64,000 nt of DNA from Perkinsus chesapeaki (taxonomy: Eukaryota; Perkinsozoa; Perkinsida; Perkinsidae), in the NCBI GenBank assembly GCA_013115145.1, contig JAAPAO010000080.1, forward strand, positions 1 to 64,000, given 5' to 3'. The position numbers and the translations under genes are program-made. The notes beneath the pieces were generated by a model. It saw only the letters and a list, made by a program, of their open reading frames with translations, searched no databases and was not told the origin of the DNA. The number at the start of each line of letters is the position of its first letter. Position 1 is the first letter of the stretch. Shown here one piece after another: positions 486 to 26,736 of this stretch.

Positions 486-3400
486 CTAATTCCGAGTATC
501 AAATCGTGCATATAATTTAACCATTTCGTTGAAGTTATCTTCGACCCCGAAACCGCGAGCGTAGTCGAAGCCCAAATGCGAAAACTCTGCCAAGTTGTTG
601 TCGCTCCTTCCATCTCGCCATGAATGAATCTTTGCGTCCTCTTCCAGCATCGCAATGGCCTTGGCAGTGGCCGCGTCGACCGTCGAGGTTCGTCGCTTCT
701 TTGTCGCCGGTTTTGCTTTGTTCTCGAAAAAATCTGTTAGCGTCTGCTGGTTCTTATCGCCTGTTGTTGAGGCACTCGCTTGTTCCCTAGCGTGAACCCG
801 CACGGCAATTCCTGCACCACGAATCCGATGTACTTCCACGCCTTCCAAGAGGCCGATCGCTAACGTCGCGATATCGTTCTTGGTCGGTGTGATAGGACAG
901 GATCGACTCCACTGATAGCATGCCCCGATTCCCATGAACTTGAAGGGTTCGACCCAGTCATCGGGAGCCAGATAAAGCCTAAGAATGACCCTCTCCGGTG
1001 AGAGTCCTTCCAGCAATGGCGTCACTTGCGCCACAAGAGCCTGGACCAGCTGCCTGGCAGACTCGGGTGTCACATTCCGGATCCCGAAGTTCTTGTCGGC
1101 GCTGACTGTGGAGATATCGGTAACCAAGTCATTCCGATAATCCTCACCGCGAGCATTGGTAAGCATCCTCTCAACGGTTTTAGCCCCGAACGACTGGTTC
1201 AATGCGGGTACCAAGTTAGGGTCCAACAAGTCACCAACCGTAACCAGACCGAACTCGTTCTGTAATTTCTCAAGCGTGCGATAGCCGACCTGTGGCAGCA
1301 TGTGCAGAGGCAACTCAGCCAGGAATGCCCTGTTATGGAGGACCCTCACACCTTTCGGTTTGGCCTGTGTAGTGGCAATCTTAGCAAGAACATGGCTGTC
1401 TGCGATTCCGACTGAACACGGCAGGCCAGTCGCTCGGGTCACGGCTCTTTGCAGTGCCTCAGCTACAGCGGCTTCGTCCGAGTAACTACAGTCCCCAGAC
1501 ACATCGACGATGGCCTCATCAACGCTTTTCGCCACGACTCTGTCAAGCGTCCCTCCACCAACAACAGCCATCAATCGAAGCATCTGTTTCCATGCAGTAT
1601 TGCACTGCGTCAACAACTCGCTGGTGACAGGGATCTTCTCCAGGTCCGGACACAAGTCTTTCACCTCGGCAAGCCACATGCTCCCAGAAACACCATACTT
1701 CCGCGCTGCATAGTTCGCGCTACAGATTTCGCTTCCGCGGCCCATACCAGAAACAACAGCCATCGGTCTTGGTGACTCGGGAACGCCCGTCGCCTGCAGC
1801 TGAGCTACACAAGCGAAGAAACTGTCGAAGTCGCAAAGCATGAACCGCCTGTTTGTTTCTGGTTTCGGCTCTCGATGACGCTCGCACTCCTGCTGAAGCT
1901 CCTCCACAACCTCGGCTGCGACTTCTCCTTCTGACCACAACCCTTCGGCAGGTTGGCATTCTTCGATAAATTGGCGGAATCGCCTCCGCCATGTGCCAAG
2001 GAAATGTAGTCGGCTGCTCGCGAAGAAGGCATCGACCGCACCCTTAGTGTGCCCAACGGATGCCCCCGCAGGCTGACAAGTAGCGAGGACGCTCTTGGAG
2101 GTTACCGGGGGATCTTGGAGCTCGAAAGCCGTGATAGTTATCATGCCGACCCTTCCAAAGGACGACACCATAGGCGCAGCCATCTGTTGTGCGGTAGCAA
2201 TAATATTATCCAATGCTGGCATCGGGCACCGGCGACTCTTTGTCTCATAGGTCGCCGTTGCCTCCCGTCCCAAGGCCACACACAGGCTTTTGGGGTACTG
2301 AGGTGCACGTGCTTTGACACGCTCGATGACATCCTTGCTCAGGGACTCGATCCAAAAGCGTATTTTATCTACTTCTTTCAGGTACGGGCGGAATATTTTC
2401 GATGCACTCACACTGCCGGCTTTAAGGGATTCAGAGTCCTTCACGCCCCTGGCGTTCTCAATAGGGTCCTTCCCTCTCGAGGCTAGCTTCAACCAGGATA
2501 TCAGATCTGCGTGGACCGGGTCTACGTCCAGCTCGTCGATAACCGGCCAGATTTCTGCACATTTTGTGTCACCAGTAAGCCAGGGAATAAGCTTTTCAAT
2601 GTCTTGGAAGGTTGCTCGGCCAACTCCTCTTAAAGATTTCACTTTCACCTCGGACATGAATTCGAGTATCTGACCAGGAGCTGCTGCCCGCCCGCAGAAA
2701 AACGAGAAACCTCACCTTGCTGTCACTCAAAGCCGTGACTGCATCGGGCTTATTCAGGCCGCACGCAAGCTTCGCCAACTGACGGTTGCTAGCTATGCCC
2801 GCGGACATCGTGAAAGACGTGACGGCTTCGACCTCCTTTCGAAGCCGCTCTGCCCAAATAGCGCCTTCCTGCAGGGCCGCATTGCCAACCTAAAATGGAA
2901 TATGAGAGGCTCTGCGAAAATAATGCAAGGCAGTTTCGTTTAAAGTCACAAGGGAGAAATAGCAGACCCAACCTGAAAGAGCGAATCCGTACTCGGTACT
3001 AGAGCCCACTCAACTAAACTCGGTATTAGAAGCATGATCACTCAAATCAGCTAAGTCAAACTGACTCCAGATCATGCGAAAATATGATCCATGGTTCATC
3101 GGAAGCAATCAGTCAGGTTACCGTACTGAAGAGTTAATCGACACCAAGGCTATCATTTTCTATCCATCAATTTCTCTCCGGAGGTGCAACCAGCCTAGCT
3201 GGAGGTTTCCTAATGTTTTCCATACGTAGTCTGCCAACGGAATGCGCTTTCAATCTATGCAAAGCGCATTACAGACTTCGCTCGGATAATGTCAAGTCCT
3301 CATCTGGGAAAATGATATGCACGACAACATAATGTTGCCAACATAGCCTCGGTTCATGAGGCTGTGGAACGTCTCCCTGCGTGAGGTGCCTCGGTTTGAT

Positions 3401-4786
3401 TTGTATCACGGTAAGCTGATTCCCGTTCTGCGATAGTTTACTCTCCCCATTTCCGCGTACAGTGTCAGCTCAGTGGGGTCACCGACGCAGCCGTTGAGAA
3501 CGTGTACCATTTGTTTGCGAAAGACCGACCAGAATTCCGGGCCCACAAGAAGGAAAACCAGGTCTCAGTGGAATGTTGGCTAATCTCCCGTTCTGCAAGG
3601 GCAGCTCACGCGGAGCGACCATTTCTATAAACGAGGTCCACTTATAAGTGGCACTTACACTCATAATGAGTAACCTATCATACAAAGCCTCTTGGCCCGA
3701 GGCCTCAAACTTGGTATACCGGATTCAACACGTCACCGTTTAGTGGTTACCAGAGACGCGTCAAGTTTCCGGCTGTATTGGTTACACTCTGTTGTTCGCC
3801 GGGGCTTAACCAAACCCCTAGCGAAACCGGACTAGGCCCTACTCTTCTACTCGAGAAACCGGTTGGCAGTTTAACCGCCAGCCGGTTTCTCTAGTATCCG
3901 CCGCGCGTTTAACCGCCGCGGTTATCGGCAGGGCTTTCAAGAGCACCACTTCACCTTGTAGTCTACTCGAGGCCACAGGCATAAACTGTCAGATACCTCC
4001 GCTGTGCACCAGGCGTGCTTAACAGACATGTGTTGATGAAAGTGACCCTGTTGGGTTTCTCAGATACGAGATTCGAAATTATGGCGGCAGAAAGGTCCGT
4101 AGGAGTCTTGCAAAGTACCACTTTGAATCGCTATGCCGTCTGTAACCCATTTGGTCTTACCTCACCACCCACCCACTTAATCCCCTCAGGCATTTGCTCC
4201 TGTTGTTCCTCTCCACAGAGAGACGTAAGATCAACGAAAACCTCATCAATGCTGGCACGCTCTAACGGTGCCGACTCCGGAAGTGCAGTACGGAGAGCAC
4301 GCATAACTGATGTGGTAGATTGACAGGATTACTCATGAACCAAGAGGTACCTTCCTCGCTTGCATCTCGATATCGATCCAACGAGACTCTATACCGATCA
4401 CGAGGTTGACCTGGCGGAGGGCCATTAGGTAAAACTTCACCAGTACCAACGTCCACCACTTCAACGTGTGCACTTCTGGCTCCAGCCTTCTCCGCAATGG
4501 AGGTGGAAGCTCCACGCTTGACCTGAGGCCAGCTATGAAGACCATCTATCCGGATCGAGTTCCGAACAGACGTGATACTTCAGCGAACCAGACGTGGACG
4601 TACCCCGGGAATCTTCCTTGCAGAGTAATCCACAGCCAAAACCATGTCCCACTGTGACACGACAAAAGGCACCGAACTCGGGATACCAAGACGGCGGCGT
4701 TCGACTTGAGCGTAGAAGCAGTCGAGGTCGAAGAGCGCTATGACGGGGGGTACTGCATGTGATGACCGAGTTTCAGGAGAAGCCAT
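486..4786 (-). CDS. Tandem Y-family DNA polymerase: Pol eta-like module fused to REV1-like module
   Basis: Five exons join in phase: 4786-4604, 4522-4351, 4306-4161, 2889-2716, 2669-486 (952 aa). Module 1 (about 1-420) is a full Pol eta-type translesion polymerase. It has FDLDCFYAQVE (metal ligands about 20 and 22), a fingers region ending RYRDASEEVM, RASIDEVFVDLT (second acidic pair), GIASNRQLAKLACGLNKP, and a little finger with GSVSASKIF and SRRCPMP. Without a stop the same exon continues into a REV1-like module: SRLHFLGTW (REV1 N-digit hallmark), CDFDSFFACV (catalytic Asp pair), SVDEAIVDVS, and CSVGIADSHVLAKIATTQAK. A PCNA-box, QQTLTDFF, lies at 749-726 and is followed by basic residues. 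No BRCT domain is seen. Both active sites look intact, so both translesion activities are expected in one nuclear chain. The stop of the upstream gene is 77 nt away, and TTATTAG lies just before the ATG. Confidence 0.85.
2890..4160 (-). other. Long intron 3 of the polymerase fusion gene
   Basis: This 1,271-nt intron separates exon 3 (ending ...GGTGAG, donor GTAAGA at 4160) from exon 4 (acceptor TTTTAG at 2895-2890). It is about 28 times longer than most introns here. Phase is kept across it, and the protein motifs on both sides belong to one polymerase domain. I found no convincing coding frame inside. It carries a foldback near 3853-3891 and repeated GAAACCGG and TTAACCGCC words at 3800-3930, so it may hold an inserted nonautonomous element. 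Confidence 0.6.
3853..3891. repeat. Foldback hairpin inside polymerase intron
   Basis: GAGAAACCGG (3853-3862) pairs perfectly with CCGGTTTCTC (3882-3891). After one mismatch, TGGC (3864-3867) pairs with GCCA (3877-3880), leaving a 9-nt loop. A further GAAACCGG lies at about 3823, and a second TTTAACCGCC is at about 3908. It could be a MITE-like foldback or a structured intron part. Confidence 0.6.
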
Positions 4787-20894: not shown

Positions 20895-21359
20895 CGGGTA
20901 GCTGGACAAAATGTGAATCGTAGGGCAAACCCCTTCCTGGTGGGGATCAATCTAGCGGAGCGAAGCGGTTCAACTCGACCATTTTCTCACGGCATACAGA
21001 AACGGCTGATGTATTACTGAATGCTCAAATGTAACCGCGGGAGCTGAAGCTTGAAAAGATACAAACCGAGCAGTCTACGGCTCGAGCCGCTTCCTTTGTG
21101 AGATTACCATCGTTCCATTAGCCTAGCAATAGTAATACCAACTCCGAAGTTAATTCCACTACCTCCACCGTCTCGGGTGTAACCAGATGCTCGTAGACTT
21201 CTTGAGATGGATCACTGGACCGCCGCCGATGGGGGGATATGGAGCCCGCTGCTTCAGTTCCGTCAGAAGACAGTGCAGCACAACACGGATCAACAGCGTC
21301 AGACCTCGAGGGAAAATGTCAAAAACGCGCATAGGGACAGCAAATTGTGTGACGAAAAT

Positions 21360-21625
21360 TATACCACACTTCGCACAACTCGTAACCTAACTAGGCGTTG
21401 AGGGGACAACAACCCTTGTCGACTGTACTCGAACAGGATCACTTATGTAGTGATTTCCTTTCGTTCACAAGAGTACTCTTGACAAAACCCTAAACCGTGA
21501 TGATGATATGTATACCACATCCACTCGGAGGTTTAGTCCACAATAATAATAATTGTGCGACTTCGATGAGTTTAATACTTCAACAGAAGTTACGGATGTT
21601 GGTAATACTGAGCGGTTAACAATTA
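21360..21625. repeat. 266-bp dispersed repeat, copy 1
   Basis: This block is the same length as, and differs at only two positions from, 26189-26454. Both copies begin TATACCACACTTCG and end GCGGTTAACAATTA. The two copies are in the same orientation. The block contains the 14-bp palindrome CAAGAGTACTCTTG and a GACAA...TTGTC hairpin. No coding frame is conserved in it. It lies about 466 nt upstream of the coiled-coil gene start and downstream of the copper-transporter fusion stop. Confidence 0.9.
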
Positions 21626-21774
21626 GTGAATCATTTTTTTATCGCTGTTATGGTTCTCGCTGGTTGCTCGTAAAGGAAAGCCCAAATTATCGAATGTTGG
21701 TATATTTCTTTTACACATTCACGCTTAAATTGCCGAGTATCACCATTTTTCATCACCTGTAATCTCCACGCTGG

Positions 21775-23598
21775 TCATTGGATAAGAATATACGTCCAAC
21801 CGCCACTCCTAGTACAACCTAAAGCCACCAAAGTCTGCTGCATCACAACAACTCCCAGTAGAAGCACTACAGAGAGGAAAAGCTCCGCTGAATATGTCAT
21901 AGCGACAAGCATTGCCATATATGCCAATATTAAATTGATTGAGAAAAGCAATACAAGAATCATCTTCCCTCTGAGGGTCGATCGGCTAGTACCTGACAAC
22001 AGACTAGGATTGAACCTGGCGTGGCGCTTACTTAGACTGTTCTCGGTTCTCTTGCGCAGTCTCATGGATGCCTCTGCGACTATACCGAGGCAGAATACGG
22101 CCAACATTCCCAAGGCGAACTTCAAGCGGGTATTCAGAACTAGGGGGTGAAGGAAGAGAATGATGCAAGTGCGGTGCTCCGACCAAAGGAACCTTCCAAG
22201 CAGGTAACACAGCAAAGCGCCGGCGGAGCAGCAGCAGCGCTTACTGAAAGCCTGACATAATCATATCCGTCGAACTTTCACAGAAATTATCCTCCTTAAC
22301 TGTTTCTTCGGCGGTGACATCGATGGAGCTGATCCCCGGCGGGCACCTGAGCTGCAGTAAAGGCCGAGAGTACAGAGAAAACACATGCCTCAGAGCGCAG
22401 TCCGGGTTCATCTTTCCCGGGCTCATATCGCAGAGGTCCGACTTGCGGAAATCCCAACAAACAGCATTCTCCGCCGGGCATCCTTCAGGAGGGGTCATGC
22501 ACCTCAGCCAGCAGTAGACCTGTCCTGAGGCATCCACGAGCAAAGGTTATTGGCATCTACCTGTCCAGCTGCACACTGGCTCAGCATTCTCCGTGATTGG
22601 AACGCCTGAGGTGCCATGAAGAACTGCTGATAGGCAAGACCGGCAGAGTTGATGGCTGTTGGAGGAGCCATCATCATTCGCCCGAATACAACTCTGGGCC
22701 CGGACGAGCCATCAGCAGGTACAACAACCTGAGCGATGGATGGCGAGTTGCCGAGCTAGGCTTGGCACCTTATGAAGGGCAGCGGTGACGTCGATGCCTG
22801 GGGCCAACCAAGACCGAAGTGCCTCACCAAAAATAACAACCAGGGAGTCGCCAGTTCCAGGCAGCTCCACGGGACCTTCCGCGAAATGTAGGGCTTTATC
22901 GCCTAAGCAGATACCGACTGCTACCATAGGAATGCTGCTGGAGCTGACCTCTTGGCAAGGACAGAAGAAGGAACAGCCCCATGTCGGCGTGCATCTCCAC
23001 AGGCTCCTCCTTCTCCACTGCATCTCCGCTGCTGCTGCTGCTGCTGTTGACAGGCTTCTTATACAGATTCCAATGGTCAAGATGATGCCGTCCACCATCG
23101 ACCGCGATAATCTCGGCAAGTCTGGATAACCGTTGCCCGACCTCAAGCGTCACATGAGGTTCATAGTCCCCTACCAACAGGGTAACATCCAGCTCCTCGG
23201 CTAAGCGCTGCGATACCTATCAAAGCTACTACCATTCCAGAGACTTAACGAAAGTTCACCTTTTGCATCACAGAATCGACCGTGAGAATGTCTGTCAGTG
23301 AAAGACAGTCCGGGACTTGCGAGGTTTCCCCGGCATATAGAGCCAGCGTTTGCTTCGTCTCATCGCGGAAGCCAAAAATAGTCTCTTTGCATTCAGTCGT
23401 TAATTGATTAGTAATGCGTGCTCTAGCACTGGTGAACTCAGCGGGGATGCCCGTTACTATAAAGGTGCCTCTTGTCAAGGCTGCCTTATCAATGGCTGCC
23501 CCGTGGCCTATACTACCGTACTCTACTATACTGCCCCAGCTGGCCTTTACGGCCAAGGTGATACCCAACAGGAGGCGCCGTCCTGTTGCATGGACCAT
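21775..23598 (-). CDS. 2OG-Fe(II) oxygenase fused to CTR copper transporter
   Basis: The ATG at 23598 opens a signal-like start (RRLLLGITLAVKASWG). A DIOX_N-like part follows (RGTFIVTGIPAEFTSARARI), then the double-stranded beta-helix core. It has MHADMGLFLLLSLP (H-x-D iron ligands), GTGDSLVVIFGEALRSW, ALHKVVVPADG (third His) and SGPRVVFGRMMMAP (possible 2OG Arg). After a 41-nt intron the frame continues into a Cys-rich ectodomain (CWLRCMTPPEGC, DLCDM) and MIMSGFQFLWSEHRT. Three CTR membrane spans follow: LKFALGMLAVFCLGIVAEA, LVLLFSINLILAYMAMLVAM with the MxxxM copper motif (MLVAM), and LFLSVVLLLGVVVMQQTLV. The stop is at 21775 and the total is about 530 aa. CTR N-termini face outside or the lumen, and a signal peptide would put the oxygenase on that side, so the topology is self-consistent. 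All six joins keep phase. Confidence 0.8.
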
Positions 23599-26188: not shown

Positions 26189-26454
26189 TATACCACACTT
26201 CGCACAACTCGTAACCTAACTAGGCGTTGAGGGGACAACAACCCTTGTCGACTGTACTCGAACAGGATCACTTATGTAGAGATTTCCTTTCGTTCACAAG
26301 AGTACTCTTGACAAAACCCTAAACCGTGATGATGATATGTATACCACATCCACTCGGAGGTTTAGTCCACAGTAATAATAATTGTGCGACTTCGATGAGT
26401 TTAATACTTCAACAGAAGTTACGGATGTTGGTAATACTGAGCGGTTAACAATTA
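26189..26454. repeat. 266-bp dispersed repeat, copy 2
   Basis: This copy has the same orientation and length as 21360-21625, with two substitutions (T to A after CTTATGTAG, A to G in the CCACAATAAT part). The flanks on both sides are unrelated, so the unit boundaries are sharp. It sits directly upstream of the 5'-incomplete ankyrin gene. The two copies lie 4.8 kb apart, as LTRs might, but the DNA between them holds host-like spliced genes and no retroelement ORF. Confidence 0.9.
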
Positions 26455-26736
26455 ATCAATAAATTTACTTTTCGATTATCTTAATTCCGCAATGGATTAA
26501 CGGTGGCTTTTCTCTCATCAATTAGCCATATTATATTTATAATTTATCATCCTACATAATATATACTGTATGTTTTTTATAGTAAGTCTCTATAACGACA
26601 AGTATGTTTTTCTTATGCCTGTTGGATATAGTCATCATACACAGCGGCGATACGCCTGGTAAGTAGGGTATACGATCAGAAAACTTATTGACTAAGAGAC
26701 GATTGTGGTTGATTGGATTGAACATCAGCAAGAAGA
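26455..26736. other. AT-rich intergenic segment
   Basis: This segment is strongly AT-rich (for example TTATATTTATAATTTATC near 26528), with no frame or conserved motif. It begins exactly where repeat copy 2 ends. Confidence 0.5.

What the first reader, a model, noticed from the sequence alone, without database searches (positions are those of the whole stretch)
21775..23598. 2OG-Fe(II) oxygenase joined to a CTR copper transporter
Seen: H-x-D (MHADMG) and distal His (ALHKVV) of an IPNS-type fold, then Cys-rich ectodomain, MSGFQFLWSEHR and three spans with MxxxM (MLVAM); every join keeps phase and the start is signal-like. Known: CTR N-termini face outside and bind copper through Met/Cys; 2OG enzymes are mostly cytosolic and use Fe(II). 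Inferred: a surface or vacuolar enzyme-transporter that might couple metal redox, ligand oxidation or iron-copper sensing to copper uptake. I know of no described example.
Basis: partly seen in the sequence, partly recalled or inferred. Interest (0 to 1): 0.92.

Follow-up and report, generated by a model that had tools for sequence, protein, structure and literature searches.

The report
Copper transporter with built-in oxygenase domain
A single gene in the shellfish parasite Perkinsus appears to make a copper channel whose outer part is an iron-oxygenase-like domain, and the same joined protein turns up in a copepod and in unnamed public sequences, so it looks like an old, undescribed kind of copper uptake protein whose chemistry is still unknown.

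Summary
The fusion is real. On the minus strand, 10 exons (23598-21118, not 21775) encode 557 aa: signal-like start, ACC-oxidase/IPNS-like half with HxD...H...R, Cys-rich linker, and CTR copper channel with MxxxM-x12-GxxxG and a CC tail. It is not unique: P. olseni has a colinear counterpart (63%), two more loci in this genome share the build, and the three CTR loci found here are all fusions. Relatives occur in the copepod Tigriopus and ten unnamed proteins. In 17 of 17 aligned members the metal triad, two Arg and the CTR signature are invariant; trees of the two halves share all strongly supported groups. The CTR half is firm. The oxygenase half is remote: ACC oxidase E 3e-4 by profile, but below Pfam's cut-off and R-x-V instead of R-x-S; no fold could be modelled. 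Best reading: an outward-facing non-haem metal oxygenase that changes copper's chemical form at the channel mouth. That mechanism is inferred; a non-catalytic metal-binding ectodomain or a secretory-pathway hydroxylase remain open.

The parts
21118..23598 (-). whole coding gene, 10 exons, 557 aa
   Evidence: splice model; aligns over nearly its whole length with P. olseni P0001 (557 aa)
23260..23598 (-). exon 1, aa 1-113: signal-like start (RRLLLGITLAVKAS) and N-terminal oxygenase part
   Evidence: the hydrophobic run is weaker than in P. olseni P0001
22949..23216 (-). exon 2, aa 114-202: HLDHWNLY and the HxD motif (H189, D191)
22769..22902 (-). exon 3, aa 203-247: distal His H246
22561..22728 (-). 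exon 4, aa 248-303: R259 and R264 (RVVFGRM), end of the oxygenase half, first Cys of the linker (C299)
   Evidence: this exon joins the oxygenase half to the Cys-rich part
22389..22519 (-). exon 5, aa 304-347: Cys-rich linker
22245..22346 (-). exon 6, aa 347-381: end of Cys-rich linker and M375-x-M377 at the CTR entrance
22032..22192 (-). exon 7, aa 381-434: CTR first span
   Evidence: Pfam Ctr
21871..21992 (-). exon 8, aa 435-475: CTR second span with M462xxxM466
21757..21818 (-). exon 9, aa 476-496: CTR third span with G479xxxG483
21118..21304 (-). exon 10, aa 497-557: tail with DPCC (C503, C504) and stop
22520..22560 (-).
22347..22388 (-). 42-nt GC-AG intron, open in frame; its translation is absent from P0001
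21305..21756 (-). 452-nt last intron holding a dispersed repeat (21360-21637)

Best explanation
One membrane protein: a CTR-type Cu(I) channel whose extracellular or luminal N-terminus is an ACC-oxidase/IPNS-like non-haem metal oxygenase domain, joined by a Cys-rich linker that probably forms disulphides. Shown by sequence: the single reading frame, its conservation as a family, the invariant metal triad and two Arg, and the CTR pore signature. Inferred: the N-out topology (from CTR biology and signal-like starts). Inferred and least certain: the domain is catalytically active and acts on the copper supply at the channel mouth, by oxidising copper-binding ligands or by ascorbate-type redox chemistry, so that Cu(I) is released to the Met sites of the channel.
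For: Fusion: frame and P. olseni counterpart, two further loci in the same genome, Tigriopus, ten unnamed proteins. In C172 and C617 one uninterrupted exon holds the Cys-rich part and the CTR, and in C246 the same Cys-rich part follows the oxygenase half without CTR, so the middle module is tied to both sides. Five of the ten unnamed proteins lie on contigs (1816-2476 bp) little longer than the full ORF, as transcripts would be (inference). Active site: H189, D191, H246, R259, R264 in 17 of 17, Y165 in 16 of 17. Profile match to solved ACC oxidase E 3.2e-4 with HxD and distal His aligned, and to human CTR1 E 2.6e-8. CTR signature in 17 of 17. The three CTR loci detected in this genome are all fusions. 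Every strongly supported group of either half's tree is also in the other's. Context: CTRs import Cu(I), while marine copper is mostly organically complexed Cu(II) that has to be reduced first (PMC9502191, passages).
Against: No cDNA, structure, localisation or activity data. The oxygenase half has no Pfam hit above cut-off (P0001 14 bits against 23; 1 of 15 members at E up to 1), and the window protein has no hit there at all. The Ser of R-x-S is replaced, with Val in 16 of 17. 2OG is scarce outside cells (recalled). Nothing here shows that the enzyme step serves copper rather than another substrate. A parasite in bivalve tissue may not meet the open-ocean copper ligands of the context paper. 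HMM-HMM comparison with PF03171-type proteins of this genome gave low probabilities (at most 11.6%), though three ranked first, and one shuffled control (0.54%) came close to two of them (0.83 and 0.82%). Predicted starts of P0003 and P0013 show no signal-like run. P. olseni models P0005 and P0009 lack the distal-His exon.
Confidence: 0.42

Rival explanations
1. The oxygenase-like half no longer catalyses: it is a metal-capturing ectodomain that binds Cu(II) or Fe(II) at its His-Asp-His site and hands copper to the CTR, or senses metal, in the way Cbi1/Bim1 is proposed to help Ctr1 in Cryptococcus.
For: A GPI-anchored copper protein with limited homology to LPMOs, without the usual redox activity, works with Ctr1 (PMC9258870, passages). 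Human CTR1 binds Cu(II) and helps keep copper reduced with its own N-terminus (PMC8867124, abstract). The Ser of R-x-S is lost and only 11 of 282 positions of this half are invariant. P0015 has a His-rich loop just before HxD.
Against: R259 and R264 (17 of 17) and Y165 (16 of 17) stay beside the triad, which a bare metal site would not obviously need. The CTR-less paralogue C246 keeps HxD, distal His and R (read from its ORFs).
Confidence: 0.25
2. A secretory-pathway hydroxylase: the domain works in the ER or Golgi lumen on proteins (possibly its own Met/Cys region or surface proteins), and the CTR part anchors it or supplies or senses metal.
For: Known luminal 2OG enzymes such as collagen prolyl hydroxylases use 2OG and ascorbate there (recalled). 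Signal-like starts in most members and conserved Cys point to the secretory pathway. A CTR-less single-span version exists (C246).
Against: The complete CTR pore signature is kept in 17 of 17, more than an anchor needs. No substrate is known.
Confidence: 0.2
3. Artefact: two neighbouring genes or a mis-assembly read as one.
For: Ten exons, no transcript data; two introns and one acceptor rest only on P0001; P. olseni P0002 ends before the CTR, on a 1,824-bp contig; one search returned no P. chesapeaki protein for this locus.
Against: The same order at three loci of this genome, in P. olseni, on a 15.3-Mb Tigriopus contig and in ten unnamed proteins; the Cys-rich module is shared with both sides.
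Confidence: 0.03

Closest known systems
CTR/SLC31 copper transporters (Pfam PF04145; human CTR1 structure 6m97)
   Same: Ctr profile, MxxxM-x12-GxxxG, Met pair before the first span, Cys pair in the tail
   Different: Human CTR1 is a 21-kDa protein with N-terminal Met-His clusters (PMC8867124, abstract and start of introduction); here the part before the channel is about 370 aa with an oxygenase-like half and a Cys-rich linker
ACC oxidase / IPNS-like non-haem oxygenases (PF03171; PDB 9sh4 and kin)
   Same: Colinear profile match over about 230 positions with HxD and distal His aligned; an invariant Arg follows the distal His
   Different: Probably secreted and fused to a transporter; R-x-V in place of R-x-S (16 of 17); below Pfam's cut-off
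Cbi1/Bim1 with Ctr1 in Cryptococcus
   Same: A surface protein related to oxygenases that assists a CTR (PMC9258870, passages)
   Different: A separate GPI-anchored, LPMO-like histidine-brace protein, not fused; homology was not tested here
C246 paralogue in this genome
   Same: Oxygenase half plus the same Cys-rich module
   Different: Ends in one hydrophobic span, no CTR seen; read from ORFs without a full splice model; contig end lies about 0.9 kb downstream

Membership tests
CTR copper transporters (PF04145) | Pfam Ctr score above curated cut-off | tested here: met
   41.7 bits against 25.3 (on the earlier 520-aa version of the model); 15 of 15 A3 members match at E up to 1
CTR copper transporters (PF04145) | MxxxM-x12-GxxxG signature | tested here: met
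   17 of 17; signature as stated in PMC9502191 (passages)
CTR copper transporters (PF04145) | three transmembrane spans | tested here: met
   hydropathy only, windows about 398-426, 439-468 and 460-488, the last two running together; crude
CTR copper transporters (PF04145) | N-terminus outside, trimer, Cu(I) uptake | not testable with these tools
   needs experiment
2OG-Fe(II) oxygenase superfamily, ACCO/IPNS type (PF03171) | HxD...H metal triad | tested here: met
   17 of 17
2OG-Fe(II) oxygenase superfamily, ACCO/IPNS type (PF03171) | Arg of the R-x-S co-substrate motif (motif recalled) | tested here: met
   R259 17 of 17
2OG-Fe(II) oxygenase superfamily, ACCO/IPNS type (PF03171) | Ser of R-x-S (motif recalled) | tested here: not met
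   Val in 16 of 17
2OG-Fe(II) oxygenase superfamily, ACCO/IPNS type (PF03171) | Pfam score above curated cut-off | tested here: not met
   best 14 bits against 23, in P0001 only, of 15 members; no hit for the window protein or the C617 model
2OG-Fe(II) oxygenase superfamily, ACCO/IPNS type (PF03171) | similarity to a solved member | tested here: met
   ACC oxidase E 3.2e-4, profile 26-253; by single sequence the window protein found none
2OG-Fe(II) oxygenase superfamily, ACCO/IPNS type (PF03171) | double-stranded beta-helix fold | not testable with these tools
2OG-Fe(II) oxygenase superfamily, ACCO/IPNS type (PF03171) | Fe(II)- and 2OG- (or ascorbate-) dependent activity | not testable with these tools
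   needs assay

The most novel reading that the evidence does not exclude
An ancient enzyme-coupled copper importer: a CTR channel with its own outward-facing non-haem iron (or copper) oxygenase that strips or reduces organically bound copper at the channel mouth, conserved from alveolate parasites to crustaceans and the only CTR type found in this Perkinsus assembly.
Probability: 0.3. Interest if true: 0.85.

Novelty: new variant of a known kind. Interest (0 to 1): 0.62.

Why it matters
CTR proteins carry Cu(I), while marine copper is mostly Cu(II) bound to organic ligands, and the enzymes named for the reducing step are separate FRE-type reductases (PMC9502191, passages). A CTR with a conserved enzyme-like ectodomain in the same chain would be a direct handle on that step and could link oxygen or iron status to copper uptake. 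It also gives a clear, testable protein in a copepod used in copper-tolerance work (recalled), and suggests that Perkinsus may depend on this form, since no stand-alone CTR was found in this draft assembly.

Tried and rejected
Separate genes or mis-assembly: rejected (see rivals). First gene models of 520 and 581 aa were replaced by the 557-aa model after alignment with P0001 showed two extra in-frame introns and another acceptor; searches used the 520-aa version. Viral or prokaryotic origin: no relative in viral contigs (0 of 38 pattern matches confirmed) or genome contigs (0 of 20); the patterns fell in the CTR and tail parts, so a lone oxygenase half would have been missed. HMMER with the N-half profile against 446 ORFs of fetched DNA hit above threshold only the gene itself, in the window and in the overlapping locus L012. 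HMM-HMM: the longest ORFs of five loci with PF03171 hits, 31 decoy ORFs (some overlapping one another) and 20 shuffles, top 20 printed. L028, L031 and L026 ranked first to third at 11.6, 0.83 and 0.82% probability; L026 and L028 pass Pfam's cut-off, L031 does not; the next entry, a shuffle, had 0.54%. L029's longest ORF (perhaps not its 2OG ORF) ranked sixteenth and L027 was not in the top 20. Weak support only. NCBIfam gave nothing useful.

Limits of the protein searches: one search scored only the 8000 candidates sharing most words; searches scored 318 and 399; candidates are limited to 0.55-1.75 times the query's length, so ordinary short CTRs could not appear and the family count is a lower bound.

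Rows left out of the 17-member count: P0002 (N half only, short contig), P0005, P0006 and P0009 (P. olseni models with parts missing; P0005 and P0009 lack the distal His), P0010 (oomycete CTR with another N-terminus), and the C246 paralogue (no CTR).

Papers: PMC8867124 outline with abstract and start of introduction; PMC9258870 and PMC9502191 passages only; all others only in search listings, not opened. The claim that no description was found rests in an open-access library; listings were cut.

Full report
WHAT IS THERE. The window very probably lies in Perkinsus chesapeaki: contig C172 of the same assembly is 46,510 bp, and P0008, named FOL47_004461 [Perkinsus chesapeaki], sits on a contig of that length and matches my C172 model but for two residues at one exon start. 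On the minus strand, 23598 to 21118 reads as 10 exons and 557 aa. Eight introns are 39-52 nt and the last is 452 nt; all are GT-AG except one GC-AG. One search returned no P. chesapeaki protein for this locus, so it may not be annotated as one gene.

ORDER OF PARTS. (1) Signal-like start; clear in P0001, C617 and C172, weaker in the window gene, and not seen at the predicted starts of P0003 and P0013 (P0003 begins later than its near relative P0011, so its model may lack an exon). (2) Oxygenase-like half with H189, D191, H246, R259, R264, Y165. (3) Cys-rich linker with seven invariant Cys from C299 to C369. (4) CTR channel with M375xM377, M462xxxM466 and G479xxxG483; the spacing is exactly MxxxM-x12-GxxxG in 17 of 17. 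(5) Tail with C503C504.

HOW WIDESPREAD. In this genome the Ctr profile finds three loci and no others even at E 10 (5 of 5 matches fall in them): the window gene, C172 and C617. All three carry the oxygenase half. The search is exon by exon and the assembly is a draft, so a CTR cut into small exons could be missed. A fourth locus, C246, has the oxygenase half and the Cys-rich module, then a single hydrophobic span and a stop (read from ORFs). Outside: P. olseni P0001 and P0004 pair with the window gene and C617 in both trees; P. olseni P0007 is near C172 but does not pair with it in either tree. Tigriopus californicus P0003 lies on a 15.3-Mb contig. Ten unnamed proteins (P0011-P0020, sources jgi, ena, ncbi, lgn), all 536-625 aa, have both halves. 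Five of these sit on contigs of 1816-2476 bp, about the size of their own mRNA. The searches exclude short proteins by design, so they say nothing about how common plain CTRs are. Neither viral nor prokaryotic collections gave a relative.

IS THE FIRST HALF AN OXYGENASE? For: the profile of 15 members finds ACC oxidase (five related sequences) among solved structures, best E 3.2e-4, and apart from CTR1 nothing else below E 0.95; the alignment lays HxD on HxD and the distal His on the distal His. Of 282 positions in this half only 11 are invariant in 17 members, and H, D, H and the Arg are four of them (chance about 1e-6 if invariance were random, which overstates the case because sequences are related and such residues change slowly anyway). 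UniRef names P0001, P0002, P0007 and P0008 'Fe2OG dioxygenase domain-containing'. Against: Pfam's 2OG-FeII_Oxy is below cut-off, the Ser of R-x-S is Val in 16 of 17, HMM-HMM probabilities are low and one shuffle came near two of the three best, the single window protein finds no oxygenase among solved structures, and no fold could be predicted. I therefore call it ACCO/IPNS-like and do not file it as a proven 2OG enzyme; ACC oxidase and IPNS themselves do not need 2OG (recalled).

ONE HISTORY. In trees of the first half and of the rest, built apart, every starred group of either tree is also present in the other: window gene + P0001, the other four Perkinsus genes, C617 + P0004, Tigriopus + P0011, P0016/P0018/P0019, and, weakly supported in the first half, P0012-P0014 and P0017 and P0020 with that trio. 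All Perkinsus genes together are strong for the first half (100/99) but weaker for the second (78/87), where long branches meet. The trees differ in the order inside P0016/P0018/P0019 (93/83 against 93/87) and in which of P0007 and P0008 branches first. This fits one old fusion passed on whole; it does not date it or exclude transfer between lineages.

HOW IT MAY WORK. CTR N-termini face outside (established for the family), so with a signal-like start and a Cys-rich linker the metal site should sit outside or in a lumen. Copper must reach the CTR as Cu(I), and marine copper is mostly ligand-bound Cu(II) (PMC9502191, passages). The economical guess is that the domain changes copper's form next to the pore. 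The Cryptococcus pair Cbi1/Bim1 and Ctr1 shows that a surface protein related to oxygenases can serve a CTR, there without redox activity (PMC9258870, passages). Conserved Arg and Tyr residues lean me towards an active enzyme over pure binding, but only modestly.

VERDICT.

Noticed in passing
window 21360-21637 and 26189-26466: A dispersed repeat of about 280 bp (98% between the two copies) lies in the last intron of this gene and next to ankyrin-repeat ORFs; 12 matching places in the genome, these two included. It may be an intron-dwelling mobile element.
   Followed up: partly
L024 (G000:C246:117000-122574), about 3050-4660: CTR-less paralogue: oxygenase half plus Cys-rich module ending in one hydrophobic span.
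   Followed up: partly
L023 (G000:C617:2500-8000): This stretch has GC 0.326 against 0.45-0.56 in 2-kb steps of the window, although its fusion gene is about 80% identical to P. olseni P0004 in the linker and CTR parts.
   Followed up: no
P0010 (Aphanomyces cochlioides): Oomycete CTR with a different Cys/His-rich N-terminus and an extra C-terminal extension that resembles a heavy-metal-associated domain by eye (label recalled).
   Followed up: no
P0015: Long His-rich loop immediately before the HxD motif and a His-rich linker in an unnamed family member.
   Followed up: no
window 489-2711 (-): Large ORF with Y-family DNA polymerase (IMS) domains.
   Followed up: no
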